Assembly (NCBI GenBank): GCA_021813505.1
Contig: JAKAKI010000069.1
Location: 1-32,773, forward strand
DNA: 32,773 bases
Direction of reading: 5' to 3'
Origin: a bacterium
GTDB lineage: Bacteria; Zixibacteria; MSB-5A5; WJJR01
Shown piece after piece: positions 3,806-31,093 of the stretch (position 1 is the stretch's first letter; the number at the start of each line of letters is the position of its first letter). Under the pieces are notes generated by a model. The model worked only from the letters and a program-made list of their open reading frames with translations, did no database searches and was not told the origin of the DNA. The translations under genes and the position numbers were made by a program.

Positions 3806-3812
3806 TAGGCGC

Positions 3813-4861: not shown

Positions 4862-4885
4862 AGTCTCTACCCTTCAATCCGATCG

Positions 4886-6219: not shown

Positions 6220-6259
6220 GAATGCGATGGGTGGAGGGTAACGGCGCCGGTTGCCATGT

Positions 6260-7657: not shown

Positions 7658-7667
7658 GATGTGGCGG

Positions 7668-8684
7668 TTAGTTGAGACGGCGTCCTACGACGTTGGCGAT
7701 TGCTGTCACCTGGTGCACGAGATCATGAAATTGTTCCGGGAACAGAGACTGCGGGCCATCCGACAGCGCGCTGTCGGGATGGGGGTGGACCTCGACCATG
7801 AGTCCATCCGCACCGACCGCGATCGACGCACAGGAGAGCGGCACTACCTTGTCACGGCGGCCGGTTCCGTGGCTCGGGTCGGCGATAATCGGCAAATGGC
7901 TGGTGCGCTGGACAAAGGGGATCGCAGACAAGTCGAGGGTGTTGCGGGTGTGATCGGCGAACGTGCGAACGCCACGCTCACACAGAATGACATTCGGATT
8001 TCCCTCGTTGACGATGTATTCGGCGGCCATGAGAAGTTCTTCGAGCGTGGCCGACATGCCCCGCTTGAGCAGCACCGGCTTGCCGGCGCGGCCGGCGCGG
8101 CGCAAAAGCGAGTAGTTTTGCATGTTACGCGCGCCGATCTGGACAAGATCGGCGTAGCGGGCCACCAGTTCGAGGGATTCGTTGTCGATGGCTTCGGTCA
8201 CAACCGGCAGCTTATGCCGTTTCCCGGCATCCGCCAGAAGTTTTAAGCCGCTCTCGCCGAGACCCTGGAAACTATAGGGCGACGTGCGGGGCTTGAATGC
8301 CCCGCCGCGCAGGATGTGAGCACCGTCATCCTTGAGGATAGCGGCAATCGTGTCGATTTGCTCGGCGGACTCCACGGCACATGGTCCCGCCATGATGACG
8401 AACCGGTCGCCGCCGACCCGGACACCACTGACATCGACGAGAGTGTCCTGCTCGTGGAACTCCCGCGAAACCAGTTTGTACGGCGCCGTCACCTGAATCA
8501 CGCGGGCGACGCCCGGCATCTGCTCGAGGCGGGAGGCGTCGACCGCGCTTTTGTTGCCGGTGATGCCGATGGCAGTACGCTGGGCACCCGGCATCGGGTG
8601 GGGGGTCAGCCCCATGGCGGAGATTTCCGCGCAGACAATCTGGACCTGAGCCGGCGTGGCGTGGCTCTCCATTACGATTAACAT
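7668..8684 (-). CDS. aroF: 3-deoxy-7-phosphoheptulonate synthase (DAHP synthase, type I beta)
   Basis: This enzyme condenses phosphoenolpyruvate and erythrose-4-phosphate, the committed step of the pathway. The first 70 or so residues form the ferredoxin-like regulatory domain of the type I-beta subgroup (MLIVMESHATPAQVQIV), which in homologues mediates inhibition by aromatic products; the barrel begins near FVIMAGPCAVES. Key motifs are GGAFKPRTSPYSFQG, IGARNMQNYSLL, KPVLLKRGM, ILCERGVRTF and IADPSHGTGRRDKV (metal and substrate ligands). The 338-residue size fits. AGGAG lies 8 bases before the ATG. It sits 51 bases downstream of argS and heads the shikimate block. Confidence 0.97.
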   Translation of the reverse strand: MLIVMESHATPAQVQIVCAEISAMGLTPHPMPGAQRTAIGITGNKSAVDASRLEQMPGVARVIQVTAPYKLVSREFHEQDTLVDVSGVRVGGDRFVIMAGPCAVESAEQIDTIAAILKDDGAHILRGGAFKPRTSPYSFQGLGESGLKLLADAGKRHKLPVVTEAIDNESLELVARYADLVQIGARNMQNYSLLRRAGRAGKPVLLKRGMSATLEELLMAAEYIVNEGNPNVILCERGVRTFADHTRNTLDLSAIPFVQRTSHLPIIADPSHGTGRRDKVVPLSCASIAVGADGLMVEVHPHPDSALSDGPQSLFPEQFHDLVHQVTAIANVVGRRLN

Positions 8685-8735
8685 GACATGACTCCTGACG
8701 TTCTATGTGAGGCGCCCAAGGGCGGCCGCGCATTC

Positions 8736-10475
8736 CTACATTCGTTTGGGGGCAGACAACCCCAGCAAATACAGCCCACTTTCGAAAACCTGGCGCAGAC
8801 AGTCCGCGAGCAGAATGCGAGACGGAGCTGCGGCCGGATCACCATCGAGTATGCGAACATTCTGATAAAACGTGTTGTATGCCTGCGCCATGTCCAGAAG
8901 CGAGGCCGCAATGATCTGCGGCTCGTACTGGCGTGCCGCCTGCCGAATCCGGCGAGGCCAGTCGGCCAGAAGAAGCAGCAACTGCCGCTCTTCGTCGGTG
9001 TGAAGGCGTCCCAGGCCGGCGTCAGCGGCACCCGGAATCGGACGGCCCCACTTCGCCATCAGGGAGCAAAGGCGCGCGTGGGTGTACTGGAGATAGGGGC
9101 CGGTGCGTCCATCGAACGAAAGTACTTCATCCCAATCGAAGTTGACATCCTTCTGCCGCTTGACCGAAAGCATCCAGAAGACCACCGCGCCAACTCCGAC
9201 CGATTCGGCCACCGCTCCGGCATCTTCGAGACCCGGATTGTGTTCGGCGATGATCTTGCGCGTGAGCTGAACCGCTTCACCGATGACATCGTCAAGGAAT
9301 ATGATGTTCCCCTTCCGGGTTGACATCATCGTGTCGGCGAATTTGACCCAGCCGAACTCGACATGCACCATGCGCTCGGCCCAGTCGTAGCCCATGCGTT
9401 TGAGCGCAGCGAACAATTGCCGGAAGTGCAATGCCTGCGCGGTGCCGACGATGTACAGGCACTGCTCGAAGTTGTAGGTTTCGTGGCGGTACTCGGCAGC
9501 GGCGAGATCGCGCGTGGCGTAGAGCGTGGCGCCGTCGGCCTTGCGCAGCAGAAGCGGCGGCTGGTCCTTTTCGCCGACATCGATCACCAGCGCCCCGTCC
9601 TCCCCGACGGTGGCCAGTCCCAGTTTCTGCAAACGATCGATCAACGGCGCCAGCCGTTCTTCATAGAACGCTTCGCCGGCATACGAGTCGAATGAGACAC
9701 CCAGCCGCTTATAGACACGATCAAACTCGGCCAGAGACAAGTCGCGGAATCGCTGCCACATGGCGCGATTGGCCGGATCGCCGTCTTCCAGCTTCTTGAA
9801 CTCCGCTCGCGCTCGCTCTTTGAGTTCGGGATGCGGCTTCTCTTCCTCATGAAACCGGACATAGATGTCAAAGAGATGCTGAATCGGCTTGGTGGCGAGA
9901 AGCTCCTCGGAGCCCCACTCGCGGAAAGCCACAATCAGGGAACCGAACTGCGTGCCCCAGTCGCCGAGGTGGTTGATGCCGGCGGTTTTGTAGCCGAGCT
10001 TTTCGAGAATGCGTTTGAGCGAATGGCCGATAACCGTCGAACGCAGATGGCCCACACCGAATGGTTTGGCGATATTCGGGTGCGAGTAATCCATGCAGAT
10101 CGTCTTGCCCGCACCCTCGGCAGAGGATCCGTACTTTGCGCCCGCTTCGGCGATGATCGGGAGCACGCTTTGAGCGACGGTGCCGGCGTCATACCAGACA
10201 TTGAAATAGCCGCTGATGGCCTGCACGCGTATGACCGATGCGGGCGCGTCAAACGAATCGGCGATTAATTCGGCCACTTTCGGAGGCGGCATCTTCAAAT
10301 CTCTCGACAACAAGAAACACGGCAGGGCGGAATCGCCGAAGCCTTTGCGATTGGGCGTCTCGTACAATTCCGCAACCTGCTCCGGCCTAAGGATCTTTCC
10401 CAGTCGCGCCAGGGCAACCGATGTGGCTTCGCACACTTCGTTGAAATAGGCTGGGATTTTCGTCTCGGACACCAT
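8736..10475 (-). CDS. argS: Arginyl-tRNA synthetase
   Basis: ArgS charges tRNA-Arg. The 579-residue protein starts with the additional N-terminal tRNA-binding domain, then the catalytic core with HPNIAKPFGVGHLRSTVIG, where the first histidine of the usual HxGH signature is glycine, and the variant second signature DTMMSTRKGNII in place of KMSKS. The C-terminal anticodon-binding domain contains YLQYTHARLCSLM and ends LLGLSAPKRM, the near-universal family terminus. An AGGGAG lies just before the ATG. It sits 16 bases after trpA and 51 before aroF, so it appears co-transcribed with the aromatic genes although its role is translation. Confidence 0.97.
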   Translation of the reverse strand: MVSETKIPAYFNEVCEATSVALARLGKILRPEQVAELYETPNRKGFGDSALPCFLLSRDLKMPPPKVAELIADSFDAPASVIRVQAISGYFNVWYDAGTVAQSVLPIIAEAGAKYGSSAEGAGKTICMDYSHPNIAKPFGVGHLRSTVIGHSLKRILEKLGYKTAGINHLGDWGTQFGSLIVAFREWGSEELLATKPIQHLFDIYVRFHEEEKPHPELKERARAEFKKLEDGDPANRAMWQRFRDLSLAEFDRVYKRLGVSFDSYAGEAFYEERLAPLIDRLQKLGLATVGEDGALVIDVGEKDQPPLLLRKADGATLYATRDLAAAEYRHETYNFEQCLYIVGTAQALHFRQLFAALKRMGYDWAERMVHVEFGWVKFADTMMSTRKGNIIFLDDVIGEAVQLTRKIIAEHNPGLEDAGAVAESVGVGAVVFWMLSVKRQKDVNFDWDEVLSFDGRTGPYLQYTHARLCSLMAKWGRPIPGAADAGLGRLHTDEERQLLLLLADWPRRIRQAARQYEPQIIAASLLDMAQAYNTFYQNVRILDGDPAAAPSRILLADCLRQVFESGLYLLGLSAPKRM

Positions 10476-10491
10476 TACTCCCTTGCGACAA

Positions 10492-11298
10492 TCATTCTGC
10501 CGCCCTCACGAGCGCGCCGATGGTCCGGCCAACACCGACTGCGGCCTGAGGCTTGGGCGATTCCCGCAGGATTCTGACCAGCGCGGAGCCCACCACAAAA
10601 CCATCGGCAAACAATTTCAACGCGCGAACATGTTCCGGCTGGGATATCCCGAAGCCGACCACATAGGGCTTCTTCGCCACCCGTCGCACCCGCCGCAGGA
10701 ACCGTCGGGTCGACTCGGACACATCGCGCCGCACGCCGGTCACTCCCGCGACAGACACACAATATGAGAACACCGTTGAGCCAGCGTCAATCAATGCGAC
10801 ACGTTCATCGGGGGTTGTGGGTGCAATCAGGAAGACATTTGCCATTCCCGCCTGCCGGGACGCACTTCTCCACTCGGCCGCCTCATCGATCGGGCAGTCC
10901 GGGACGATCGTTCCAGTGGCGCCCGCGGCGCGCGCGGCACGGGCGAACCGGGCAAATCCCATCTGGCTGATGGGATTGAGATACCCCATGAGCAAGATGG
11001 GAATCGGCAGTCGCGCACTCAGGCGCGACGTCAGTTCGAGGACACGCGGCATCGTGATCCCGCTGGCCAGTGCAATCTGTGATGAGTACTGAATCGCCGG
11101 TCCGTCCGCGAGCGGATCGGAAAACGGCATGCCGATTTCGAGCGCCCCGGCCCCGGCATCGCACGCAGCCACAGCGGCGTCGACGAATCCCGATACTGTC
11201 GGATATCCGGCCGTCAGGAAGGGGATAACGGGTTTACCGGCGGTGAAGAGGTCTCGCAGCCGGTCATCGACTGCCGTGTCCTTGCGGAACTGAGGCAC
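10492..11298 (-). CDS. trpA: Tryptophan synthase alpha chain
   Basis: TrpA splits indole-3-glycerol phosphate into glyceraldehyde-3-phosphate and indole, which is channelled to TrpB. The catalytic pair is present: Glu54 in LEIGMPFSDPLADGP and Asp65 in the same motif, and PFLTAGYP, LLMGYLNPI and the phosphate-binding VVGFGIS are typical. I chose a GTG at 11298 because GGAGG lies four bases upstream and the resulting 268 residues equal the classic length. The frame is open to another GTG at 11343, also preceded by GGAG, which would add 15 residues. It is separated from trpB by a gap filled with palindrome copy 2. Confidence 0.95.
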   Translation of the reverse strand: MPQFRKDTAVDDRLRDLFTAGKPVIPFLTAGYPTVSGFVDAAVAACDAGAGALEIGMPFSDPLADGPAIQYSSQIALASGITMPRVLELTSRLSARLPIPILLMGYLNPISQMGFARFARAARAAGATGTIVPDCPIDEAAEWRSASRQAGMANVFLIAPTTPDERVALIDAGSTVFSYCVSVAGVTGVRRDVSESTRRFLRRVRRVAKKPYVVGFGISQPEHVRALKLFADGFVVGSALVRILRESPKPQAAVGVGRTIGALVRAAE

Positions 11299-11302
11299 CT
11301 GG

Positions 11303-11307
11303 CCTCC
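11303..11307 (-). promoter_or_regulatory. Ribosome binding site deciding the trpA start
   Basis: GGAGG on the minus strand sits four bases before a GTG at 11298. It favours this codon over the more distal GTG at 11343, which has only GGAG at 6 bases. Confidence 0.5.
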
Positions 11308-11380
11308 GCGGGCGTGAGATCTCGTGGCATTGGTTCGGTTCACGGGCGGCTCCGTGGAAGGGTGGAGTCAAGCCCGACGA

Positions 11381-11451
11381 GGGAGGGCGAGGCTCCTGCC
11401 GAGCCTTTTTCGCCACGCCCTAAAATGGCTCGGCAGGAGCCTCGCCCTCCC
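11381..11451. repeat. Long palindrome family, copy 2 (trpB-trpA gap)
   Basis: Two perfect 25-base reverse-complementary arms (11381-11405 and 11427-11451) surround a 21-base loop that is the most divergent of the seven. It fills about half of the 190-odd bases between the trpB stop and the trpA start, otherwise one of the widest gaps in the trp block. Confidence 0.95.
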
Positions 11452-11491
11452 AGACCATGCGAAACGTATGCCGATGGGATGTTCGTGGTAT

Positions 11492-12772
11492 TCACTCCAT
11501 CCTCCTCGAGCGCGTGGAGATTGCGTCGGCACGTAATTCTGCTGCCGCCATGACCGTTGCCAGGTCCTTGTCGCCTCGCCCCGATAGACAAACACCGATG
11601 ATCTGGTTTGATGACAGGCGGGCAGGAAGTTTCCGGACAGCCGCCAGCGCGTGTGCGGACTCCAGGGCCGGGAGGATTCCCTCAAGCTCGGATAACGCGG
11701 TGAAGGCGGCAAGCGCCTCCTCGTCGGTCACCGAAGTGTAGGTGACCCGGCGCGAATCCTTGAGATACGAATGTTCAGGGCCGACTCCGGGATAATCGAG
11801 TCCGGCGGAAATCGAGTGGGGAACGGTGATCTGCCCATCGTCGCTCTGCAAGAGATAGCCGGCGGAACCGTGCAGGATTCCGACACGCCCCGCGCTCAGA
11901 CTGGCGGCGTGTTTTCCGGAATGCAGACCGCAGCCCGCCGCCTCGACACCCAGCATTCGGACGGATTTGTCTTTCATGAATGCGGTGAAGAATCCGAGGG
12001 CATTGGAGCCTCCACCAACACAGGCGACCAGCAGATCGGGAAGCCGGCCGATTTGCAGTTTGAACTGGGTTCGGGCTTCCTCCCCGATCACGCGTTGGAA
12101 CTGGCGCACCATGAATGGATAGGGATGCGGACCGACGACGGAACCGATGACATAGAAGGTATCATCGACGCGCGCGACCCAGTCGCGGATCGCCTCGTTT
12201 GTGGCATCCTTGAGTGTCTGCGCCCCCGACTCGACCGGAATCACGCGGGCGCCGAGCAGTTTCATACGGGCGACGTTGGGCGCCTGGCGCTCGACGTCAA
12301 TCTTGCCCATGTACACATCGCACTCGAGGCCGAATCGCGCGGCAACAGTCGCTGTCGCGACACCGTGCTGGCCGGCGCCGGTCTCCGCAATGACTCGTTT
12401 CTTGCCGCCACGGACCGCCAGCAGAATCTGGCCAAGGGTGTTGTTCAGTTTGTGCGAGCCGGTGTGATTGAGGTCCTCACGCTTGAGATAGATCCGGCCA
12501 CGGCGCCAGCGAGTGGAAAGCCGCTCGGCGAAGTAAAGCGATGTGGGGCGTCCGGCAAACTCATGCATCAAGCGCCGGTATTCTTTCTGGAAAGCTGGAT
12601 CCTTCCAGGCCTTTTCGAAATCGGCCGCAAGGCGTTCCAGAGCTGGAATCAGCGTCTCCGGAACATACCGCCCGCCGTAGGCACCGAAGCGTCCGCGACG
12701 GTCCGGGCGCGGAAGGAAAGGGGCGAGGCGATTCCCAAGATCAGACGCAGGATTGTGTTTCTTATTCACCAT
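11492..12772 (-). CDS. trpB: Tryptophan synthase beta chain
   Basis: TrpB condenses indole with serine using PLP. The 426-residue protein is of the TrpB1 type that pairs with TrpA: it has [19 protein letters not shown] near the N-terminus, the PLP lysine in [15 protein letters not shown] (Lys108), the catalytic glutamate in [15 protein letters not shown], and the phosphate-cradle [22 protein letters not shown] and [18 protein letters not shown] are further family signatures. The ATG is preceded by AAGGA at six bases and follows trpF by 9 bases. The last 15 residues, rich in Arg and Ser, extend slightly beyond the usual terminus. Confidence 0.98.
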
Positions 12773-12781
12773 ACGGATTCC

Positions 12782-13423
12782 TTAGCCATCCATTCGAGTA
12801 TCGGCGGCGTGCACGGCGTTTACGAATGCGGCGATCTTGTCCGCTGATTTGAAACCCGGACTCTCCTCAACACCGGTAGAGACGTCGACTGCGAATGGAC
12901 GCACGGCCCGGATGGCATCGGCGACATTGGCTAGGTTAAGTCCACCGGCGAGCCAGACGCGCGGGAATGAACCGCCTTTTGCCAGCAGGGACCAGTCAAA
13001 TGCCCGCCCCGATCCACCTGGGAGATTCGGGTCGGCGGAGTCAAACAGATAATCAGCAACACCGTTCATCCGGTCGCCCGGCGTGGGAGGCTGATCTCCG
13101 ACTCGGATCGCGCGGATCAGAGGGATCATCTTGGCCAATGTCTGCCAATCTCCCCTTGGAAGATCTCCGCAGATTTGCGCGGCGCGCAATCCCACACAGT
13201 CGGCGGTGTCGGCTACCTCATCCGCGGTCGCCCCGACGAATACGCCGACAGATTTCACCAATGGAGACAGACAATCAATAATTTCTGTCGCCTGATCGAT
13301 GGTGACGTAGCGGGGACTCTGCGGCCAGAAAACCAATCCGATGGCATCGCATCCTGCCATCTCGGCCGCGAGCGCATCGGCCGGGCGGGTGATCCCGCAG
13401 ATTTTGATCCGTGTCCGGGGCAT
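12782..13423 (-). CDS. trpF: Phosphoribosylanthranilate isomerase
   Basis: TrpF performs the Amadori rearrangement of N-(5-phosphoribosyl)anthranilate. The 213-residue barrel begins RIKICGITRPADA, with the catalytic cysteine, continues with GLVFWPQSPRYV, and has the catalytic aspartate region and phosphate-binding end in WLAGGLNLANV and AVDVSTGVEESPGFKS. It is a stand-alone protein, not fused to TrpC as in enterics. It starts 3 bases after the trpC stop and is followed by trpB after 9 bases. Confidence 0.97.
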   Translation of the reverse strand: MPRTRIKICGITRPADALAAEMAGCDAIGLVFWPQSPRYVTIDQATEIIDCLSPLVKSVGVFVGATADEVADTADCVGLRAAQICGDLPRGDWQTLAKMIPLIRAIRVGDQPPTPGDRMNGVADYLFDSADPNLPGGSGRAFDWSLLAKGGSFPRVWLAGGLNLANVADAIRAVRPFAVDVSTGVEESPGFKSADKIAAFVNAVHAADTRMDG

Positions 13424-13426
13424 CGT

Positions 13427-14257
13427 CTACTTTGCCCCTCTCAATTGCTGCAACATCCGGGCTGGATCGTTCGAGCGAATCAGAGTTTCCCCAATGAGAA
13501 ATCCCTGGAATCCATCGGCTGCAAGTTCCTGGATTTGAGCCGGTGTCTCCAGGCCGCTTTCCGCCACGGCAATTGCACCGGGGGGGAACATCGGCACCAG
13601 CGTACGGAACCGATTCGTGTCCACTGTGAAATCATCGAGGTTGCGCGCGTTGATTCCGATCAGTTTCGGTCCCAGGGGCAGGATCTTCCGCAAGTCTTCC
13701 TCATCGTGTATTTCGAATAGCACTTCCAGCCCGGCGCCGTCCGCGGTTGCCTTCAACTCGGATAGCTGCGATCCATTCAGGATTCTCGCGATCAACAGGA
13801 TGGCATCGGCGCCTAGGGCGGCAGATTCTGAGACTTGAATTGCATCGATTATGAAGTCCTTGCGGAGGATGGGCAGGGTCACGGTGCGGCGTATCTCGGC
13901 CAGCCAGCCCGGATCACCCTGGAAGTACTTGGGCTCGGTGACGACAGAAATTGCGGCGGCGCCACCGGTTGCATAGGAAGCGGCCAGTTTGATCGGATCG
14001 AAGTCCGTGCGGAAGTCTCCCTTGGATGGAGAGGCCCTCTTGATCTCGGCAATGATTGCCGGAGCGCGTTTGGTCAGGGCTGCCAACAACGATCGCCCGG
14101 CGGGTGCTTTGACGGCTTGATTGGACCGGCACGCTGGTTGTTCGTGATGCAAACGAGCAACGCGCTCGGCGGTGGCGGCGACGATTGACTGGAGAATCGC
14201 CGGGATGGGCCGTTCACGCTGTCTGGTGAGATCGTTGGACATCGAATCGGCCATCAT
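13427..14257 (-). CDS. trpC: Indole-3-glycerol phosphate synthase
   Basis: TrpC closes the indole ring of the pathway intermediate. The barrel carries all expected catalytic residues: Glu and Lys in IIAEIKRASPSKGDF, Lys in ILRKDFIID, Glu in LFEIHDEEDL, Asn in IGINARNLDDF, Glu in AVAESGLETP and the phosphate site FLIGETLI. The start is placed at 14257, where ATGATGGCC overlaps the transporter stop in the arrangement ATGA; GAGGA lies directly before it, which would also serve the ATG three bases further in. A longer open frame to 14314 runs only through the end of the transporter gene. A third candidate start is the ATG at 14242 (MSNDLTRQ). Confidence 0.96.
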   Translation of the reverse strand: MMADSMSNDLTRQRERPIPAILQSIVAATAERVARLHHEQPACRSNQAVKAPAGRSLLAALTKRAPAIIAEIKRASPSKGDFRTDFDPIKLAASYATGGAAAISVVTEPKYFQGDPGWLAEIRRTVTLPILRKDFIIDAIQVSESAALGADAILLIARILNGSQLSELKATADGAGLEVLFEIHDEEDLRKILPLGPKLIGINARNLDDFTVDTNRFRTLVPMFPPGAIAVAESGLETPAQIQELAADGFQGFLIGETLIRSNDPARMLQQLRGAK

Positions 14258-15645
14258 TCCTCGCACGGCCGGAGCCCATCCGCTACTGAGGGCTGCCCAG
14301 CATAGACTTCGCACTTGCGGAAGTACAGGAAATAGAGCGCGCTTGAGGCCACATAGAGCCCGCTCGCAATCAAAAGCGGCATGACGTAGCCGGAATGCTC
14401 AATCATCGATCCGCCGATGGCCGCGGTCACCGCCCACGACAACGACCACGCAATCATCGACCAGCTATTGACCAATGCCCGGTCGCTCTCCCCCACTCGT
14501 TCCATCATGTAGTTGTTGGAAATCGGCACACCCATGTTCATCAACGCGCCCCGCATTAGAAACGCCATGGTCGCCAATGGCAGGTTGTGGGTGAACGCGA
14601 GGATCACCATGAATGGCAATGATGCCCATTCCGAGAAGACGATGGTTCTGACCATGCCGAAGCGGCGCGCCAGCTCCGGCCCAACGAGGACGCCGAGAAT
14701 CATCGTAGCCTGGACCAGTCCGTAGTAGACGCCGATGGTCTGCGCCGAGAGGCCGAAGCGATCCTTGAAGTACAAATTGAGAAACGGGATGATCAGTCCG
14801 GCGCCCATTCCAACCAGAAAGAACGGGAAGGTGAGCTTGAATAGGAGACGTCCCCGCGTATTCCAGAACTCGCGGAGTGGAACGCGTTTCGACCGCTGCC
14901 CCACGACGCCGCGAGGGATCTTGTAGAATGCGAATATCCCCATGACGGCAAATGAGCACCCGATCAAAAGCACAATGTGGTAGGCAGTAATCGAGGATCC
15001 GGTGACACCGATTAGGGCACTATGGAGCGAACCGGCGCCGAATTGGGTGAGCAGACCAGCGCACAGAGTCGCTGCGAAGTTCAGCGAGAAGACATGCGCG
15101 CGTTCCGATGGTGTCGAGTGATTCATCAGGAATGGTGAGCCAACCACCCGTGAAAAGGCGAGCATCCCGCCGGTTACAAACGACGCCACTAGAATGACGC
15201 CAACCTGAGGCGCCAGAGATTGCCACGCAAAGCCGACGGCGGCGCCGAGGGTCGAGAGGATCATCATGGCCCGCGCGGAAATCCGCGAAACCAGAATCGC
15301 CGCGGGAATCGCCAGGGCCACCATACCGAATGACTGGAGCGACAGGACGCGGCCGATGATTCCCTCCGGGACGCCCTGCTCCTTCAGATACAAGTTGAAG
15401 AGAAGCGAAAACGTGGACCATGCCATTCCCAGCAGGGTTGTGCCCAGCAAGAACCAGCGCGCGGGCACAGTCACCTTGCGGAAATTGTCGAGGTACACGT
15501 TGAACCAATGGCGCGTCACACCCTTGGGGTCCCCCGATAGATCGCGAGCAGGAGCCGGGTCAACGCTCCGCTGCCCGGGCTTTCCCGCCGGTCCCGAGGA
15601 TCCTGGTGATATGGTCGATGGGTGTGTCAATTCGCTCTCAAACAC
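14254..15645 (-). CDS. MFS transporter lodged between trpD and trpC
   Basis: The product has about 12 hydrophobic helices in two halves, with an MFS-like first half (WFLLGTTLLGMAWSTFSLL, then the loop ISARAMMILSTLG between helices 2 and 3) and a second half starting near LLFKLTFPFFLVGMGAGLI. It should be an inner-membrane secondary transporter. The first 50 or so residues are polar and proline/serine-rich. A GTG at 15645, 4 bases after the trpD stop, is my choice; the frame opens further to a TTG at 15687 overlapping trpD, and a shorter start near VTRHWFNVYL is possible. The stop overlaps trpC by 4 bases. Placement inside the trp genes suggests transport of tryptophan, indole or an anthranilate-type compound, but the substrate is not readable. 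Confidence 0.85.
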   Translation of the reverse strand: MFESELTHPSTISPGSSGPAGKPGQRSVDPAPARDLSGDPKGVTRHWFNVYLDNFRKVTVPARWFLLGTTLLGMAWSTFSLLFNLYLKEQGVPEGIIGRVLSLQSFGMVALAIPAAILVSRISARAMMILSTLGAAVGFAWQSLAPQVGVILVASFVTGGMLAFSRVVGSPFLMNHSTPSERAHVFSLNFAATLCAGLLTQFGAGSLHSALIGVTGSSITAYHIVLLIGCSFAVMGIFAFYKIPRGVVGQRSKRVPLREFWNTRGRLLFKLTFPFFLVGMGAGLIIPFLNLYFKDRFGLSAQTIGVYYGLVQATMILGVLVGPELARRFGMVRTIVFSEWASLPFMVILAFTHNLPLATMAFLMRGALMNMGVPISNNYMMERVGESDRALVNSWSMIAWSLSWAVTAAIGGSMIEHSGYVMPLLIASGLYVASSALYFLYFRKCEVYAGQPSVADGLRPCEE

Positions 15646-15649
15646 CGTT

Positions 15650-16666
15650 CTAGAGTTCGCCTCGCGAAGCTGCGGCGGCGGCATCAATCAGTCTGCCCAC
15701 CCGGCCATCTTTGACCGCGGCACGGGCGACGCCAATCCCCTGCCGGATGGAATCGGACTTGCCGGCGACCCAGAGCGCAGCACCGGCGTTCAGCAGGGCA
15801 ACTTCGGTCTTCGGGCCATCGGCCCCGGAGGCGATCTGCCGGATGATGGCGGCATTGCCTTCGGCGGAGTCACCTCGCAAGGCATCGACAGAGATGGCGG
15901 AAATGCCGAAGTCACTCGCATCCATGGTAAACTCGCGCACCCGACGGCTGTCCCATTCGGCGAAATGATTCACGCCGGAGGGCAACAGTTCATCGGCGCC
16001 ATCGGGACCGGAAACGACCAGGACACGTTCGGCACCGACCGAACCGAGCGCGGCCGCAATCGATGTCAGCCAGTGCCGGTCGAAGACACCGATCACCTGG
16101 CGCTTGACACGGGCGGGGTTGCACAGCGGCCCCAAAATGTTGAAGACGGTCCGCACGCCGATTTCACGCCGCGGTCCGATCGCGTGTTTCATGGCCGGAT
16201 GAAATCCCGGCGCGAAAAGGAAGGCGAAGTTTGTTTTGTGCAGCGCTCTCTTCGCTATTTCCGGTCCGGGATCGATGTTGAATCCCAGCGCCACCAGGAC
16301 ATCGGCCGATCCGCAGTTCGATGAGACGGCTCGGTTCCCGTGCTTCGCGACCGGCACATCGCAAGCCGCAACAATCAGGGCCGCCGCAGTCGAGATGTTG
16401 AAAGTGGACAACCCGTCGCCGCCGGTCCCACAGGTGTCGATGGTGTTTTCGGGAACATCATCCAGCGTCACCATCGCGCCACGCATGCCTCGGACAAAGC
16501 CGGTGATTTCCTCAGCCGTCTCCCCTTTTTGGCGCAATGCGACCAGCCACGCGGCGATTTGCGCGGGAGTCGCTTCGCCCCGCATGACAATGCCCATTGC
16601 TTCCTCGGCGCGCGCCGGATCGAGGTGCGTGTTTTCAATCGCGTGCTTGATGAATGGCTTTAGCAT
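15650..16666 (-). CDS. trpD: Anthranilate phosphoribosyltransferase
   Basis: TrpD transfers phosphoribose from PRPP to anthranilate. The 338-residue protein contains the PRPP-binding CGTGGDGLSTFNIST, the anthranilate region AKHGNRAVSSNCGSADVL, the metal-site ending KSDSIRQGIGVARAAV, and the N-terminal helical domain PARAEEAMGIVMRGEATPAQ. The ATG at 16666 is preceded by GGGAGG at 10 bases. The frame runs further upstream, but that extension only translates a short repeat hairpin (SRESGNP) and is not expected to be protein. It follows trpG by 107 bases. Confidence 0.97.
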   Translation of the reverse strand: MLKPFIKHAIENTHLDPARAEEAMGIVMRGEATPAQIAAWLVALRQKGETAEEITGFVRGMRGAMVTLDDVPENTIDTCGTGGDGLSTFNISTAAALIVAACDVPVAKHGNRAVSSNCGSADVLVALGFNIDPGPEIAKRALHKTNFAFLFAPGFHPAMKHAIGPRREIGVRTVFNILGPLCNPARVKRQVIGVFDRHWLTSIAAALGSVGAERVLVVSGPDGADELLPSGVNHFAEWDSRRVREFTMDASDFGISAISVDALRGDSAEGNAAIIRQIASGADGPKTEVALLNAGAALWVAGKSDSIRQGIGVARAAVKDGRVGRLIDAAAAASRGEL

Positions 16667-16695
16667 GGGCGACGAACCTCCCGTGTGCCGGAACA

Positions 16696-16723
16696 CTGGA
16701 TTCCCGCTTTCGCGGGAATGACG
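16696..16723. repeat. Short dispersed hairpin repeat between trpG and trpD
   Basis: On the minus strand CGTCATTCCCGCGAAAGCGG continues to GAATCCAG; the arms ATTCCCGC and GCGGGAAT (16700-16707 and 16712-16719) pair around a 4-base loop. This sequence type is known as a dispersed repeat in unrelated bacterial genomes. It is not followed by a T-run, so it is not a classical terminator. Confidence 0.8.
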
Positions 16724-16773
16724 TTTGGCAGTGCTTGGCGAATCATGGCCGAGGTATCCCAACTCCTTACTGA

Positions 16774-17340
16774 CTAGATGTGTCCAGCGAGGAAGTTCTT
16801 GAGAAGGCCTTTCCCCTCTTTCGTCAGGATTGATTCCGGGTGGAACTGTACACCGACCGTTGGATGCTTCTTATGGCACAAGCCCATGATTGTGCCGTCC
16901 TCGGATGTTGCGGTGACGTCCAGGACAGCCGGAACTGATGACGGGTCGACGGCGAGCGAGTGATAGCGTGTCGCCTCGAACGGATTGGGAATTCCTGCGA
17001 AAATCCCGGTTCCATCATGCCGAATCATCGAGGTCTTACCGTGCATCAGCCGCCGCGCGCGCGTGATCTTTCCTCCGAATACTTGTCCGATCGCCTGATG
17101 TCCGAGGCACACTCCGAGAATCGGGAGCGCACCGGAGAGATCCTTCACAATGACCGGGGTCACACCGGCATCCTCGGGGCGGCCCGGTCCCGGAGACAAG
17201 ACGACTGACTCGTATTTTGTGATGATCTGACTCACGTCAATTTCATCATTGCGGTGCACGGCCACCTTCGCACCCAGTTCGCAAAGGTACTGGTACAAGT
17301 TGTAAGTGAACGAATCGTAGTTGTCGACCAGGAGGATCAT
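16774..17340 (-). CDS. trpG: Anthranilate synthase glutamine amidotransferase component
   Basis: TrpG releases ammonia from glutamine and hands it to TrpE. It is a class I amidotransferase with the nucleophile Cys78 in [17 protein letters not shown] and the His/Glu pair in [11 protein letters not shown]. The 188-residue size is normal. [19 protein letters not shown] is the classic TrpG/PabA start. The ATG at 17340 overlaps the trpE stop by ATGA and has GGAGGG at 5 bases; the open frame extends further, but that is shadow of trpE. It could also serve PabB in folate synthesis, as in single-TrpG organisms, but no pabB is in the window. Confidence 0.97.
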
Positions 17341-18821
17341 GGTTTCCCTCCCCGTTTCCAGACTCCGCCCAGCGAGGCGAGGGGCGCGGCCGCCTTGTTT
17401 TGCGTTTCGCGGTACTCGCGCGTTGGGTCTGAGTCGGCGACGATACCCGCGCCGGCTTGCGCGTAGGCACCATGGCGATCCATGACCGCGGTACGAATTG
17501 CGATGGCGGTATCGAGATTCCCCCACCAATCTATATAGCCGATGCAGCCCGCATAGACGCCGCGCCGGTCGGGTTCGATGGTATCGATGATTTCCATGGC
17601 GCGAATCTTGGGCGCTCCGGTAACAGTTCCCGCAGGGAACGTCGCCGCAAGGACATCGAGGGCGTCCACATTGGGTCGCGGCTTGCCCTCAACCACGGAG
17701 ACCAGATGCATCACGTGAGAGAACCGGTCCACGCGGCGAAACTCGGTGGTAGCGACCGTGCCGGGGCGGCACACACGCCCGAGGTCATTTCGTCCGAGGT
17801 CGACGAGCATCAGATGTTCGGCATTCTCCTTGGCCGACGCCAGCAATTGTCGTTCGAGTTGCATGTCCTGGGCCTGATCGGCACCGCGTGGACGTGTCCC
17901 GGCGATGGGACGGGTCGTAACCCGGTTGCCGATCTTGCGAACCAGTGTCTCCGGCGATGACCCGGCGATTGCGAGATCGCCAAACTTCAGGAAATACAGA
18001 TACGGTGATGGATTGGCGCGGCGCAGCCTTCGGTATACATCGAACGGTTTCGCCGGCCCATCGACCATGAATCGTTGCGAGAGCACACACTGGAAAATGT
18101 CGCCCCGGCTGATGTGGCGCTTGATGGTCCTGACGCCATCGGTGAAATCACTCGGCGTCATGTTCGAATGGATTGTGCGCGGCTTCGGCGGCAGCAATCG
18201 CGGCAGTTCGAGCGGCTGACTTAGGATGCGGGTCAACCGGTCTAGACGCCGGGAAGCGCGGTCGTAGGATTGGCGGGGCGCGAGCTCGTGCGATTCGGCA
18301 TTCGCCCGAATCGCTACATTGATTTTCGCCGACTGGTACAAGTGATCAAAGACGACGACCTCGTCGTAGAGCCCCAATTGCACCCAAGGGTGGCCGAGCC
18401 GGTCAGGGGTACTGGCCGGCAGACGTTCGAGCGTGCGAACCCAATCGTAACCGAAGTATCCGATCCACCCACCAGAGAGACCATCGGCACTGTTGCCGGC
18501 ATCTCGATGTGACGCGCACAGACGGCTGCGAACAATCCGCGGCAGCTGGCCGATGGGAAAAACGCTCTTCTTCTTCCCGATCAGGTGCGTACCCTCACGT
18601 TCGCCGAAGCTGATGGTCTCAGTCGGGCCCACACCGATGAACGAGTACCGTCCAATCGCGCCGCCCGTTTCCACACTTTCGAAGAGAAACGAGCAATCGG
18701 CCTTATCACCACCCAACCTGAGGAAAACCGATGCGGGCGTCAGAAGATCAGATGGGATCTCAGTGCTGAGAATGACCAGCCCGTGTTCACGAAGCGAGCG
18801 GCGGAAGTCGGTGAAGGTCAT
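17337..18821 (-). CDS. trpE: Anthranilate synthase component I
   Basis: TrpE converts chorismate plus ammonia to anthranilate, the entry of the tryptophan branch. The 494-residue protein has the N-terminal tryptophan-feedback motif in variant form ([19 protein letters not shown], usually LLES), the chorismate-binding motifs [38 protein letters not shown] and [18 protein letters not shown], and the closing [19 protein letters not shown]. The start is the ATG at 18821; the frame stays open to 18998 only because palindrome copy 3 has no stop in this frame, and the extra residues (GRARLLPS...GSAGASPS) are the familiar translation of that repeat. No tryptophan-rich leader peptide or attenuator was found before it. 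Confidence 0.97.
17346..17351 (-). promoter_or_regulatory. Ribosome binding site of trpG inside the end of trpE
   Basis: GGAGGG on the minus strand sits five bases before the trpG ATG and lies inside the trpE coding end, so trpG can be initiated directly besides coupling by the ATGA overlap. Confidence 0.6.
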
Positions 18822-18862: not shown

Positions 18863-18938
18863 GCCGGGAGGGCGAGGCTCCCGCCGAGCCATTCTTCCGC
18901 GCGGATACAAGGCTCGGCAGGAGCCTCGCCCTCCCGGC
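18863..18938. repeat. Long palindrome family, copy 3 (dapF-like to trpE gap)
   Basis: Arms 18863-18890 and 18911-18938 (28 bases, one mismatch) flank a 20-base loop containing CCGCGCGG. It occupies half of the 154-base gap between the DapF-like gene and trpE, so any transcript entering trpE from upstream must pass through this hairpin. Confidence 0.95.
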
Positions 18939-18975: not shown

Positions 18976-19782
18976 TCATCCTGTCTTCCATTCGCCAAAG
19001 CAGATAAAGTGGGTCATGGCCGATAGCCGCACCGTCTTGTGATCTTTGCTGATCTCGGCCGTCTGCTCACCGCCGGGCGACATTACCCGCACACGCGAGT
19101 CGATTAAACCTCGTGTCCAACAGGCAGAGACGGCGGCGAGAGCACCTGAGCCTGATGAGGGCGTCGGGCCAACACCCCGTTCAAAGATGCGCAGCTCAAC
19201 CTGATGGCGACTGAGTACTCGCGCAAACTCCACGTTCACTCCGTGACTCGGGCGATTGAGATCTTGCGCCCATGCACCGAGTTCCTCCCATGGGAGATCG
19301 AAATCGGCGACGACATAAATCCAATGCGGATTGCCGGCATCGACCGGGATGGGACCGATAAGGCGATTCGGCGATGACTTGCGTCCGGTTGAAATGGGAT
19401 CGCTGACGATCGGCATCGGTCGTTCGAACGATGCCAGATATCGTCCGGCGCCTTTAGCAGTCACAATCGATTCAATCGAACCAACCACGGTCAACAATCG
19501 CAGTTGGGCACGACGCTTGCGCCCTGCCAGGTGCGCTGCGGCGCAACGGACGCCGTTGCCCGACCATTCGGCGCGCGAACCGTCGGCATTAAACAACCGG
19601 AACGGCACACCCTTCGCCGACGGTTTGCCCAGAATAATCAACCCATCCGATCCAACACCACGCCGTCGATGGCAGATCTCGGCGGCCCGCCGCTGTGTCC
19701 ATCGGAATCTGGAAGAGGCCGGGCCGATCACACAGAAATCGTTCTCGAGGGCTTGGTACTTGGCGAAGTGTACGGTCGGCAT
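18976..19782 (-). CDS. DapF-family protein with both catalytic Cys replaced by Ser
   Basis: The 268-residue protein has the full diaminopimelate epimerase fold pattern: FAKYQALENDFCVIG at the start, CHRRRGVGSDGLIIL, FNADGSRAEWSGNGVRC, VDAGNPHWI and IFERGVGPTPSSGSGALAA. In genuine DapF the two acid/base catalysts are the Cys before GNG and the Cys before GSG/GTG. Here they are Ser74 (codon TCG) and Ser210 (codon TCA). The N-terminal motif is ALENDF instead of GLGNDF. The DapF name is therefore only a family label; I recall similar Ser/Ser members annotated as DapF elsewhere but cannot check. The ATG at 19782 suits the family start; the frame extends to 19851 without support. It precedes trpE by 154 bases and likely heads the operon. 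Confidence 0.85.
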   Translation of the reverse strand: MPTVHFAKYQALENDFCVIGPASSRFRWTQRRAAEICHRRRGVGSDGLIILGKPSAKGVPFRLFNADGSRAEWSGNGVRCAAAHLAGRKRRAQLRLLTVVGSIESIVTAKGAGRYLASFERPMPIVSDPISTGRKSSPNRLIGPIPVDAGNPHWIYVVADFDLPWEELGAWAQDLNRPSHGVNVEFARVLSRHQVELRIFERGVGPTPSSGSGALAAVSACWTRGLIDSRVRVMSPGGEQTAEISKDHKTVRLSAMTHFICFGEWKTG

Positions 19783-19887: not shown

Positions 19888-19904
19888 GTTGCCGAAACGG
19901 CAAC
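19888..19904. repeat. Small hairpin next to the aminotransferase terminator
   Basis: GTTGCCG, AAA, CGGCAAC pairs perfectly. On the minus strand it directly follows the T-run of the terminator hairpin at 19909-19929, forming a tandem-hairpin arrangement. Confidence 0.55.
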
Positions 19905-19929
19905 AAAAAACCCGTCGGATCGACGGGTT
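19903..19929 (-). terminator. Rho-independent terminator of the aminotransferase gene
   Basis: On the minus strand a 9-base stem (AACCCGTCG, loop ATC, CGACGGGTT) is followed at once by a T-run (the stem's final TT plus four more T). It lies 266 bases beyond the aminotransferase stop and before the DapF-like gene, so it separates the two transcription units. The 19783-20195 gap holds only this terminator, the small hairpin, the DapF promoter and palindrome copy 4. Confidence 0.8.
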
Positions 19930-20106
19930 CGAAAAATCACACAACGGGCACACCCACCGATCGCTAACGGGCCCTCGCCTTACGCCAATTCCAGTTGGTT
20001 CTCACGTATTTCATCACAGGTCTCATGAGTCAATTGACTCTTTTGTTTTACGCGGGGTGGAGTTGCGATGTTTGCATTGCCAGGAAAGTGCCTGAACAAC
20101 GCTGTC

Positions 20107-20180
20107 GAGGGAGGGCGAGGCTCCTGCCGAGCCTTGGTTCCGCGCGGGACAAAGGCTCGGCAGGAGCCTCGCCCTCCCTC
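20107..20180. repeat. Long palindrome family, copy 4 (after the aminotransferase)
   Basis: Perfect 29-base arms (20107-20135 and 20152-20180) around a 16-base loop containing CCGCGCGG. It lies 16 bases past the aminotransferase stop, ahead of the terminator. Confidence 0.95.
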
Positions 20181-20195
20181 AGACATTTCGATTAC

Positions 20196-21425
20196 TCAGG
20201 CTAAAGTCGAAAACACCCGCCCCAGCCGCTTGATCCCCTCGTGGATATTCTCCAGGCTCGCGTTGGAGAAATTGAGCCGCAACGTGTTGCCGCCGCTGCC
20301 ATCCGGATGGAAGGGTTTGCCGGGGACATAGGCGACCTTCTCTTCAATGGCCGAGTTGAACAACTGTGTGGCATCCGCATGCTCCGGCAGACGCACCCAA
20401 AGGAACAGGCCGCCGTCGGGCTTGGTCCAAGTAACCGTATCGGGGAAGAACTCACTCATCGCGCGCAGCATCGCGTCGCGCCGCTCGTGATAGGCGACTT
20501 TGAGGCGCTCGATGTGCCGGTCCAACGCGCCATTCTGGACAAACTCATAGATCACGTACTGCGCGAATTCGTTGGTATGAAGGTCGGTGCACTGCTTGAC
20601 ACGCTCGAAGACTCCCATGGTCTGGCGCGAGGCGGCAATCCAGCCGATGCGCAATCCCGGCGAAATAATTTTCGAGAACGTCCCCAGTTGAATCACCGCC
20701 TGTCCGCCAATCGACTTGATGGAGGGAACGTCGGTGCCGGAGTAGCGAAGCTCACCGTACGGGTTGTCATCAATAATCGGAATGCCGTACTGCTGCGACT
20801 TTTGAACCAGAAGCTGGCGGCGTTTCTCGCTCATGGTGATGCCGCTGGGGTTCTGGAAATTGGGGACGACATACATCAGGCGGGGATGGAGTTCGCGGAT
20901 GACGGGGTCGACTTTCTCCACCATCATGCCGTCGTTATCCATCTCGATGGGCGCATAACGGGCGCCGTAGAAGCTGAACGCCTGCAGCGCCCCCAGATAA
21001 GTCGGACGGCAGCAGAGAACGTAATTGCCGGGTTCAAGGAAAGCGCGGCCGACGACGTCGAGCGCCTGCTGCGAACCGGACGTCACCAGAATGTTGTCGG
21101 CGGACAATTGTACGCCGCCGCGCATCGCAACGCGTTCGGCAATGAATTCGCGCAACGGGGAGTATCCCATCGACAGGCCGTATTGCAGCGCTTTCGTGCC
21201 GTAATGCGTCAGCACACGGTCGGCGGCCTCGCGGATTTCCTCGACCGGAAACAGGTCGGGACCCGGAAGCCCGCCGGCAAACGAGATCACCCCCGGCTGG
21301 TTGGAGAACTTGAGAATGTCCCGGATGATCGACGACTCGAGGTTGTAGGCGGCCGGCGCAAAATGATGCGGTTCGAACTTGAACGGCGCCGGGCGTGCGA
21401 GGGCTGGTTTTTCTTCAATCATCAT
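20196..21425 (-). CDS. PLP-dependent aminotransferase, class I/II (2-aminoadipate/aromatic aminotransferase-like)
   Basis: The 409-residue protein is a fold-type I aminotransferase of the MocR/LysN/ARO8-like group. Typical motifs: VISFAGGLPGPDLFPVEEI near residue 50, QYGLSMGYSPLREFIAER, VTSGSQQALDVVGR, YVVPNFQNPSGITMS, the PLP-contacting IIDDNPYGELRY and the Schiff-base lysine in GTFSKIISPGLRIGW. There is no N-terminal DNA-binding domain, so it is an enzyme rather than a MocR regulator. Likely substrates are aromatic amino acids or 2-aminoadipate; the closeness to the trp/aro operon favours aromatic transamination, as an inference. The start is ATGATG at 21425, with no ribosome site but a promoter immediately upstream. 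Confidence 0.92.
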   Translation of the reverse strand: MMIEEKPALARPAPFKFEPHHFAPAAYNLESSIIRDILKFSNQPGVISFAGGLPGPDLFPVEEIREAADRVLTHYGTKALQYGLSMGYSPLREFIAERVAMRGGVQLSADNILVTSGSQQALDVVGRAFLEPGNYVLCCRPTYLGALQAFSFYGARYAPIEMDNDGMMVEKVDPVIRELHPRLMYVVPNFQNPSGITMSEKRRQLLVQKSQQYGIPIIDDNPYGELRYSGTDVPSIKSIGGQAVIQLGTFSKIISPGLRIGWIAASRQTMGVFERVKQCTDLHTNEFAQYVIYEFVQNGALDRHIERLKVAYHERRDAMLRAMSEFFPDTVTWTKPDGGLFLWVRLPEHADATQLFNSAIEEKVAYVPGKPFHPDGSGGNTLRLNFSNASLENIHEGIKRLGRVFSTLA

Positions 21426-21431
21426 GGACAA

Positions 21432-21459: not shown

Positions 21460-21663
21460 GTTCCTATAGGTGTAACGCGTCAACGGGATGACAAAACCGG
21501 GTTTGATGAAACGGAATTGTCAGCGAAATGAGTCGTCTCGCGGAGTGGGATGGACGGAATGCCGTGATGTCGATACGGCCAGGATGATGTCACGTTGAAC
21601 GACAAGGGCAAGTAAGGCGAACAACTGCGACCTGTCACGTGGCTTAGCGATTGACTTCGACCT

Positions 21664-21734
21664 GTCACCCTGAACGAGCGGAGCGAGTGAAGGGTCTGCT
21701 GTCCATCCACTGGTCCAAGGGGAACAACTGCAGA
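21664..21734. repeat. Dispersed repeat, direct copy A (71 bases)
   Basis: A 71-base unit beginning GTCACCCTGAACGAGCGGAG is repeated at 21865-21935 with about five mismatches. The start resembles the widely dispersed bacterial GTCATCCTGAGCGAAGCGAAG type of element. It lies in the gene-free stretch 21426-22040 between the aminotransferase and dinB; apart from these copies and the promoter I see no gene or RNA there. Confidence 0.85.
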
Positions 21735-21766
21735 TGCTTCGCTCCCTTCGGTCGCTCAGCATGACA
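21729..21766. repeat. Dispersed repeat, inverted partial copy next to copy A
   Basis: CAGATGCTTCGCTCCC continuing to GCTCAGCATGACAG is the inverted form of the same element type. With copy A it forms an imperfect inverted pair, as is usual for this family. A related stretch lies at 25788-25815. Confidence 0.7.
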
Positions 21767-21864
21767 GCGGGTGCGCACCGCACACTCACTCTGGTCCCTC
21801 ACCCCCCCTTGCCTTCGCGAACAACGACGGCCAGTCGCCCTGTTGTAACGAACGACAACTGCCC

Positions 21865-21935
21865 GTCACCCTGAACGAGCGGAGCGAGTGAAGGGTCTGC
21901 TGTCTGTCCGCTGGTCCGAGGGGAACGACTGCAGA
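21865..21935. repeat. Dispersed repeat, direct copy B (71 bases)
   Basis: Second copy of the 71-base unit, about 66 of 71 positions identical to copy A. A truncated inverted remnant (ATCCTCAGGATGACAG, near 21983-21998) follows. Confidence 0.85.
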
Positions 21936-22040
21936 GCCTTCGTCGCTCCAACTTAAGCAGAGGCGAGCGTGCCGTGCGTGTCGATCCTCAGGATGACAGA
22001 GGATAGAGCAGAACGGAATTGTATGTGCGATGAATCACTT

Positions 22041-23286: not shown

Positions 23287-23356
23287 GGGAGGGCGAGGCT
23301 CCTGTCGAGCCATGTGTCCGCGCGGAAAAAAGGCTCGGCAGGAGCCTCGCCCTCCC
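23287..23356. repeat. Long palindrome family, copy 5 (upstream of dinB)
   Basis: 25-base arms (23287-23311 and 23332-23356, one mismatch) around a 20-base loop containing CCGCGCGG. It lies 47 bases upstream of the dinB start. Confidence 0.95.
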
Positions 23357-26806: not shown

Positions 26807-26875
26807 GGGAGGGCGAGGCTCCTGCCGAGCCATGCCCCCGCGCGCAAAGAGGCTCGGCGGGAGCCTCGCCCTCCC
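26807..26875. repeat. Long palindrome family, copy 6 (adenosine-specific kinase to larE gap)
   Basis: 25-base arms (26807-26831 and 26851-26875, one mismatch) with a 19-base loop containing CCGCGCG. It lies between the adenosine-specific kinase and larE. Confidence 0.95.
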
Positions 26876-26911
26876 ATCGCGTGTCTCGCAGTGGACAGAA
26901 TTGATGGCGCT

Positions 26912-27479: not shown

Positions 27480-27548
27480 GGGAGGGCGAGGCTCCTGCCG
27501 AGCCATGATTCCAAGCGCAAAGAGGCTCGGCAGGAGCCTCGCCCTCCC
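27480..27548. repeat. Long palindrome family, copy 7 (HEAT lipoprotein to kinase gap)
   Basis: Perfect 25-base arms (27480-27504 and 27524-27548) with a 19-base loop (ATGATTCC...AAAGA). It lies between the HEAT lipoprotein stop and the adenosine-specific kinase start. Confidence 0.95.
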
Positions 27549-27606
27549 AACGCGCGGGTGTGTGTATTCCGAACTCGGTTTTGTTCCGCAACGGTTCACG
27601 TACAAC

Positions 27607-30810: not shown

Positions 30811-30874
30811 GGAGATCTCGAGATGGCTGCACAGAGCCGGAGTCAACTCGCTGTGCAATCGTCGAAGCCGCGGC

Positions 30875-30904
30875 AAGATAGACAACCGTGACCGGCGTGG
30901 TCAA
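30875..30904 (-). promoter_or_regulatory. Candidate nth promoter
   Basis: On the minus strand TTGACC (30899-30904) and TATCTT (30875-30880) are 18 bases apart; transcription would start near 30868, about 58 bases before the nth ATG. The 283-base nth-alr gap otherwise holds only the alr promoter. Confidence 0.5.
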
Positions 30905-31024
30905 ATCGACCGAGCGGGACACGAAGAATCGAGTGGCACGCAACTGTTCCGGCGTGTAAAACACTTTGATTCAACGGTGGCGCAAACCGATAAGACAGAA
31001 TGTGGGCCGTCGGGAACTTACTTC

Positions 31025-31053
31025 TTGTCAACACCGTACAGGGCGGGTACATT
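31025..31053 (+). promoter_or_regulatory. Candidate alr promoter
   Basis: TTGTCA (31025-31030) and TACATT (31048-31053) are 17 bases apart, giving a start near 31060 and a leader of about 34 bases before the alr ATG. Confidence 0.55.
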
Positions 31054-31093
31054 CGCGGCCATTGCGAGACGACCAATGAGGCGGCATCGGGAA

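What the first reader, a model, noticed from the sequence alone, without database searches (positions are those of the whole stretch)
18976..19782. DapF-family protein with both catalytic cysteines replaced by serine, at the head of the trp operon
Seen: Ser74 (TCG, 19561-19563) and Ser210 (TCA, 19153-19155) occupy the places of the two Cys acid/base catalysts, while the rest of the fold motifs (VGSDGL, NADGS, GNG, GNPH, ERGVGPT, GSGA) is intact. Two different codons make a single sequencing error impossible. Known: Cys73 and Cys217 carry out the two-base racemisation in DapF, and Cys to Ser mutants are strongly impaired. Inference: the protein is a paralogue with another activity (a different isomerase or lyase), or acts on another amino acid; its site before trpE hints at aromatic metabolism. 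I recall other Ser/Ser members in databases annotated as DapF, so the subfamily may be widespread but functionally undescribed.
Basis: partly seen in the sequence, partly recalled or inferred. Interest (0 to 1): 0.68.

Follow-up and report, generated by a model that had tools for sequence, protein, structure and literature searches.

The report
Cell-wall epimerase missing both cysteines
A bacterial gene for an enzyme that normally flips a cell-wall amino acid with two cysteines carries serines at both spots; it is not a stray copy but the only such gene in its genome, and the same double swap is the only version found in two soil Acidobacteria genomes that appear to make this amino acid, so nature may run this reaction without thiols.

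Summary
The protein at 18976-19782 (-) scores above the DapF cut-off and has Ser74 (TCG) and Ser210 (TCA) where DapF has its two catalytic Cys. The window is from a Zixibacteria genome.

The "paralogue" idea fails. This is the only PF01678 gene in the genome. It sits at a position conserved across much of the class (aminotransferase - dapF - argS). In 52 of 58 class relatives that gene is present, and its catalytic pair is Cys/Cys, Cys/Ser, Ser/Cys or Ser/Ser depending on the lineage; the sister family holds Cys/Cys and Cys/Ser. All 22 Ser/Ser proteins keep every residue that grips the distal end of diaminopimelate.

Two Acidobacteria genomes also carry Ser/Ser as their only DapF. There it lies beside mpl and an LD-carboxypeptidase-like gene; both genomes have dapB, and one has a dapB-dapA-dapD cluster. 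The best reading is a DAP-type epimerase working with serines; no activity was measured.

Two complications: the class lacks detectable DapA and DapB, so its DAP source is unknown; and in most trp-linked genomes a Trp-codon leader peptide precedes dapF, making it the apparent first gene of an attenuated trp operon.

The parts
18976..19782 (-). dapF homologue, 268 aa, with Ser74/Ser210 in the two catalytic Cys positions
19561..19563 (-). codon TCG, Ser74, catalytic site 1 (Cys73 of H. influenzae DapF), at the N-terminus of helix 75-86
19153..19155 (-). codon TCA, Ser210, catalytic site 2 (Cys217 of H. influenzae DapF), at the N-terminus of helix 211-223
19964..20026 (-). candidate trp leader peptide MRPVMKYVRTNWNWRKARAR, upstream of dapF
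   Evidence: similar Trp-rich short ORFs upstream of dapF in 11 of 15 trp-linked genomes against 4 of 41 others
19902..19930 (-). terminator-like hairpin plus T run between the leader peptide and dapF; an alternative (antiterminator-like) pairing is the MFE fold
   Evidence: the scan finds no more terminators than shuffles, and the fold z-score is only -0.45, so the attenuator rests on anatomy and recurrence
20196..21431 (-). LysN/PH0207-like class-I aminotransferase, neighbour of dapF in most families of the class
17337..18821 (-). trpE (ATG at 18821)
10492..17340 (-). trpG, trpD, an MFS transporter, trpC, trpF, trpB, trpA
   Evidence: and synteny; trpF and trpA were named from position, not scanned by family model
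8736..10475 (-). argS, downstream anchor of the conserved locus

Best explanation
The gene is the orthologue of DapF at this locus in Zixibacteria, in which both catalytic cysteines have been replaced by serines. The protein most likely still binds a DAP-like substrate (LL/meso-DAP, or an analogue such as lanthionine) with its distal end held by Asn65/Asn151/Asn183/Glu201/Arg202. It inverts or exchanges the alpha proton between Ser74 and Ser210, which sit at the N-termini of the two opposed helices. Shown: Ser/Ser, the fold (predicted), the intact pocket, single copy, orthologous position, recurrence, and sole-DapF status in two DapB-bearing Acidobacteria genomes. Inferred: that it is catalytic, that serine is the acid/base, and the substrate.
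For: One PF01678 gene per genome in 52 of 58 class relatives. Same AT-dapF-argS locus whether the pair is CC, CS or SS. Family f1 (SS) is sister to f2 (G007 CC, G008 CS) with support 97/97. At least 4 changes at site 1 and 3-6 at site 2 on the two trees. All 22 SS proteins keep N14, N65, G75, N76, N151, N183, E201, R202 and G211; N65, N151, N183, E201 and R202 align with the residues that bind the distal amino acid of DAP in Anabaena DapF (PMC12039745). AlphaFold model pLDDT 94.1, and DAP epimerases are the best PDB matches (E 2.6e-25, against 3.6e-15 for PhzF-like and 3.5e-14 for HisR). In Acidobacteria G058 and G059 the SS gene is the only PF01678 gene over the cut-off. It lies next to an LD-carboxypeptidase-like gene and mpl (456 and 447 bits, cut-off 388.7). 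dapB is present in both, and G058 has dapB-dapA-dapD adjacent. Precedent: a Ser/Cys 4-hydroxyproline epimerase and a Ser/Thr dehydratase in the related proline-racemase superfamily (PMC4113996).
Against: Cys-to-Ser mutation greatly reduced HisR turnover (PMC11602996) and is used to hinder catalysis for crystallography in this fold (PMC12039745). No characterised Ser/Ser epimerase was found. The window's genome has no DapA, DapB or Ddh over cut-off, so no known DAP supply. Four relatives (family f4) lack dapF yet keep mDAP-type MurE, so the gene is dispensable there. Another epimerase or Ddh in the Acidobacteria was not searched for.
Confidence: 0.5

Rival explanations
1. Recruited enzyme of tryptophan/aromatic metabolism: Ser at site 1 marks a new isomerase or lyase activity that is co-expressed with the trp genes under tryptophan attenuation.
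For: dapF precedes trpE in families f1, f7, f8, f10, f17; all 15 trp-linked genomes have Ser at site 1 and none of the 31 Cys-at-site-1 genomes is trp-linked. A Trp-rich leader peptide lies upstream of dapF in 11 of 15 trp-linked genomes against 4 of 41 others, Fisher p 9e-6. The window continues into DAHP synthase, aroA, aroE and aroB.
Against: Nine Ser-at-site-1 proteins are not trp-linked, including the Acidobacteria in a peptidoglycan context. Only 2-3 independent contrasts on the tree, not significant. The DAP pocket is intact. TrpB, C, D, E and G are all present, with apparent trpA and trpF, so no Trp step is obviously missing. The Fisher test ignores relatedness.
Confidence: 0.15
2. Catalytically dead DapF kept for binding (a DAP sensor or a partner protein, as E. 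coli DapF binds RppH).
For: Both thiols lost in lineages that lack DapA/DapB, so selection on epimerase activity could have lapsed; a binding pocket alone would explain the conserved residues. Moonlighting precedent: RppH-DapF complex (PMC4227774).
Against: Ser/Ser is the only DapF in dapB-bearing Acidobacteria. Across 22 genomes the sites are always Ser, and the catalytic-helix glycines and Asn76 are invariant in this group, which is unexpected for a dead site (though the group was defined by Ser/Ser; no Ala, Gly or other residue was seen at either site in any of the 56 proteins, one gapped site aside).
Confidence: 0.15
3. One-base lyase or dehydratase: one Ser abstracts the alpha proton and a leaving group on the beta carbon is expelled, as in Ser/Thr trans-3-hydroxyproline dehydratase.
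For: Precedent for Ser as sole base in the related superfamily (PMC4113996).
Against: No candidate beta-substituted substrate or pathway is nearby; the Acidobacteria context needs an epimerase.
Confidence: 0.1
4. The organism uses a DAP analogue (for example meso-lanthionine) in its wall and the enzyme epimerises that.
For: Class lacks DapA and DapB but keeps DNPR-type MurE, like Fusobacterium, which lacks the DAP pathway and uses lanthionine (PMC11602996); the pocket fits any L-amino-acid distal end.
Against: No lanthionine synthase was looked for; the Fusobacterium homologue turned out to be a histidine racemase; does not apply to the Acidobacteria.
Confidence: 0.1

Closest known systems
Diaminopimelate epimerase DapF (TIGR00652, PF01678, EC 5.1.1.7)
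   Same: Scores above the curated cut-off, same two-domain fold, both catalytic residues at helix N-termini, all distal DAP-binding residues kept.
   Different: Both catalytic cysteines are serines; in the window's genome the DapA/DapB steps that feed DapF were not found.
Proline-racemase superfamily Ser/Cys 4-hydroxyproline epimerase and Ser/Thr 3-hydroxyproline dehydratase (PMC4113996)
   Same: Related fold in which serine stands in for a catalytic cysteine in active enzymes.
   Different: Different family (no other Pfam family matched); the pairs described there are Cys/Cys, Ser/Cys and Ser/Thr; Ser/Ser was not among the passages read.
Orphan DapF homologue HisR of Fusobacterium nucleatum (PMC11602996)
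   Same: A DapF-like protein in a bacterium without the DAP pathway.
   Different: HisR is Cys/Cys, lacks basic residues in the pocket and is structurally further away (E 3.5e-14, 13% identity).
PhzF family
   Same: DapF-like fold; works on a chorismate-derived substrate, which would fit an aromatic context.
   Different: No family match to PhzF and a much weaker fold match (E 1e-13 to 4e-15).

Membership tests
DapF (TIGR00652) | Profile score over the curated cut-off | tested here: met
   153.4 bits, cut-off 114.65
DapF (TIGR00652) | DapF fold with catalytic residues at the N-termini of two opposed helices | tested here: met
   Model pLDDT 94.1; helices begin at 75 and 211; DAP epimerases are the top PDB hits
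DapF (TIGR00652) | Two catalytic cysteines (thiol/thiolate pair) | tested here: not met
   Ser74 and Ser210
DapF (TIGR00652) | Distal DAP-binding residues (Asn66, Asn164, Asn197, Glu215, Arg216 in Anabaena) | tested here: met
   N65, N151, N183, E201, R202 conserved in 22 of 22 Ser/Ser proteins
DapF (TIGR00652) | Works in a genome with the upstream DAP pathway | tested here: not met
   No dapA or dapB in the window's genome; dapB present in the two Ser/Ser Acidobacteria
DapF (TIGR00652) | LL/meso-DAP epimerase activity | not testable with these tools
   needs purified protein
Proline racemase superfamily (Ser/Cys type) | Match to the proline racemase family model | tested here: not met
   Pfam scan lists only PF01678 at E<=1
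PhzF | Match to the PhzF family model | tested here: not met
   not listed in the Pfam scan
Bifunctional DapF/glutamate racemase (NF038284) | Score over cut-off 350 bits; genome lacks MurI | tested here: not met
   60.5 bits; MurI present in all 25 genomes tested, G000 included

The most novel reading that the evidence does not exclude
A thiol-free Ser/Ser DapF is a fully working amino-acid epimerase and the sole DAP epimerase of some Acidobacteria. Cys and Ser have been exchanged repeatedly at both catalytic positions within one orthologous gene in Zixibacteria, in organisms that obtain their cell-wall diamino acid by a route without DapA and DapB.
Probability: 0.35. Interest if true: 0.82.

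Novelty: new variant of a known kind. Interest (0 to 1): 0.6.

Why it matters
DapF is a textbook case of an enzyme that needs a cysteine thiol/thiolate pair to move an alpha proton of pKa about 29, and it is an antibiotic target attacked through those thiols. A natural Ser/Ser version that is the only DapF in DAP-making bacteria would show that the thiols are not essential. The Zixibacteria series (CC, CS, SC, SS in one orthologous gene) is a ready-made set for measuring what each thiol contributes. The apparent absence of DapA and DapB from a whole class that keeps mDAP-type MurE is a second, separate open question.

Tried and rejected
Second dapF in the genome: none (the third hit, 12.4 bits on C70, is below the cut-off). 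DAP dehydrogenase bypass: none over cut-off in 26 genomes. DapL (TIGR03542): no match over the cut-off. LysA: absent from G000, over cut-off in only 3 of 26 genomes. Glutamate racemase role: MurI is present. Relatives in viral contigs: none. Known RNA families in the window, trp leader included: none at gathering threshold. Test that all Ser/Ser proteins form one clade: not rejected, p 0.053, so several origins of Ser/Ser are likely but not shown. Literature searches for Ser-type DapF, DAP synthesis in Zixibacteria and Acidobacteria wall composition gave nothing direct.

Full report
THE OBSERVATION. The reading frame 19782-18976 (-) encodes 268 aa. It passes the curated cut-off for DapF (TIGR00652, 153.4 vs 114.65 bits) and PF01678. 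Ser74 (TCG) and Ser210 (TCA) stand in the two catalytic Cys columns. The nearest relative, a separate genome named Candidatus Zixiibacteriota (L034 = G001, 88% identical), has the same two serines, so this is not a sequencing error.

NOT A PARALOGUE. G000 (3.89 Mb, 97% complete) has no other PF01678 gene over the cut-off. In 58 relatives, 52 have PF01678, one gene each as far as seen. The gene order aminotransferase - dapF - (trp operon, MFS gene, or nothing) - argS recurs across families with CC, CS and SS pairs; in some families (f3, f9, f10, f13) the aminotransferase lies elsewhere or was not seen beside dapF. The catalytic pair differs by family. SS: f1 (own), f5, f7, f8, f17. CS: f6, f9, f12, f14, f16 and G008 of f2. 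SC: f10. CC: f3, f11, f13, f15 and G007 of f2. On the dapF tree, built without the two catalytic columns, f1 groups with f2 (97/97); the fewest changes are 4 at site 1 and 6 at site 2. On an independent tree of the neighbours (aminotransferase + ArgS) they are 4 and 3. That all SS proteins form one clade is not formally rejected (p 0.053).

WHAT THE ACTIVE SITE SAYS. In Anabaena DapF the distal amino acid of DAP is held by Asn66, Asn164, Asn197, Glu215 and Arg216 (PMC12039745). The equivalents N65, N151, N183, E201 and R202 are present in all 22 SS proteins, as are N14, G75, N76 and G211. The predicted structure (pLDDT 94.1, pTM 0.91) starts helices at 75 and 211, immediately after the two serines. 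Its best PDB matches are DAP epimerases, some ten orders of magnitude in E-value ahead of PhzF-like proteins and HisR. The residue before site 1 is Met or Phe in most Cys proteins but Trp, Lys, Arg, Ile, Val or Leu in SS proteins, a hint of compensating change.

ACIDOBACTERIA. L036 and L037 lie in G058 and G059, whose only PF01678 gene over the cut-off is SS. The gene is followed by a muramoyltetrapeptide-carboxypeptidase-like gene (164 and 161 bits, below that model's own cut-off of 378) and by mpl (456 and 447 bits, cut-off 388.7). Both genomes have dapB. In G058 dapB, dapA and dapD are adjacent; in G059 dapB lies beside an aspartokinase (the G059 dapB was found by PF05173). A succinylase-type pathway needs an LL/meso-DAP epimerase (established knowledge), and the SS protein is the only candidate of the known family. 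I did not test these two genomes for Ddh or other epimerases, and their completeness is not stated.

THE PROBLEM IN THE HOME CLASS. No dapB in any of 58 genomes (TIGR00036; PF05173 also negative in G000), no dapA over cut-off in 25, no Ddh over cut-off in 26, lysA over cut-off in only 3 of 26, although controls ring. Yet all 26 genomes examined keep MurE with the DNPR motif, whose Arg binds the D-centre carboxylate of mDAP (PMC3829189). The dapF neighbour is a LysN/PH0207-like aminotransferase, which fits, but does not prove, lysine synthesis by the aminoadipate route. Family f4 has MurE but lacks dapF; in three of its four genomes the aminotransferase is followed directly by argS. So in the window's organism the substrate and its source remain unknown.

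THE TRP LINK. Upstream of dapF lies a short ORF, MRPVMKYVRTNWNWRKARAR, followed by a terminator-like hairpin. Short ORFs with clustered Trp codons precede dapF in 11 of 15 trp-linked genomes and 4 of 41 others (Fisher p 9e-6, relatedness ignored). They include QWWWM in G002, WYWYS in f10 and YWYSWW in f8. dapF therefore appears to be the first gene of an attenuated trp operon in several families. The fold itself is not unusual (z -0.45), so this rests on the peptide and its recurrence. All 15 trp-linked genomes have Ser at site 1, but 9 Ser-at-site-1 proteins are not trp-linked and the independent contrasts are too few.

MECHANISM. Most likely Ser74 and Ser210 replace the thiols as the two acid/base groups at the helix N-termini. 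Serine acting as base in related enzymes is documented: a Ser/Cys 4-hydroxyproline epimerase and a Ser/Thr dehydratase (PMC4113996). Against this, engineered Cys-to-Ser mutants in this fold are greatly impaired (PMC11602996). Natural Ser/Ser proteins may have compensating changes; this is inference. I put catalytic competence on a DAP-like substrate at 0.5.

VERDICT. Real, conserved and unexplained. It is not filed as a DAP epimerase, because a defining feature (the cysteine pair) is not met; it is a variant of the DapF family that probably works like one.

Noticed in passing
G000-G057 (58 Zixibacteria genomes): No dapB in any, no dapA over cut-off in 25 tested, no Ddh over cut-off in 26, while MurE keeps the mDAP motif DNPR in all 26 tested: the source of the cell-wall diamino acid is unknown.
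   Followed up: partly
window 19902-20026 (-): Candidate trp attenuator (leader peptide with TGG AAT TGG, then hairpin and T run) upstream of dapF rather than of trpE; similar Trp-rich leaders in families f1, f8, f10 and f17. G004, which lacks trp genes here, still has a GWSWKARR-like ORF, perhaps a remnant.
   Followed up: partly
window 2548-2617, 11382-11451, 18866-18935, 20109-20178, 23287-23356, 26807-26876, 27480-27549: Seven copies of a 70-nt near-perfect palindrome (GGGAGGGCGAGGCTCCTGCCGAGCC...GGCTCGGCAGGAGCCTCGCCCTCCC); the copies checked lie between genes: a REP- or MITE-like family; one copy separates dapF from trpE, another the aminotransferase from dapF.
   Followed up: partly
window 21645-21741 and 21846-21942: A 97-nt direct repeat (CACCCTGAACGAGCGGAGCGAGTGAAGGGTCTGCTGTC) in two copies.
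   Followed up: no
G010, G019, G025, G032 (family f4): dapF missing; in three of the four (L110, L111, L112) the aminotransferase is directly followed by argS, a clean gene loss.
   Followed up: partly
window 2642-10475 (-): The trp run continues through argS into DAHP synthase, aroA, aroE and aroB, an aromatic supercluster; an alanine racemase domain protein lies at 30764-32305 (+).
   Followed up: no
L050, L051 (family f2): The GNG motif after catalytic Cys 1 is changed (TCLNG, TCVNG) in the sister family of the window's.
   Followed up: no
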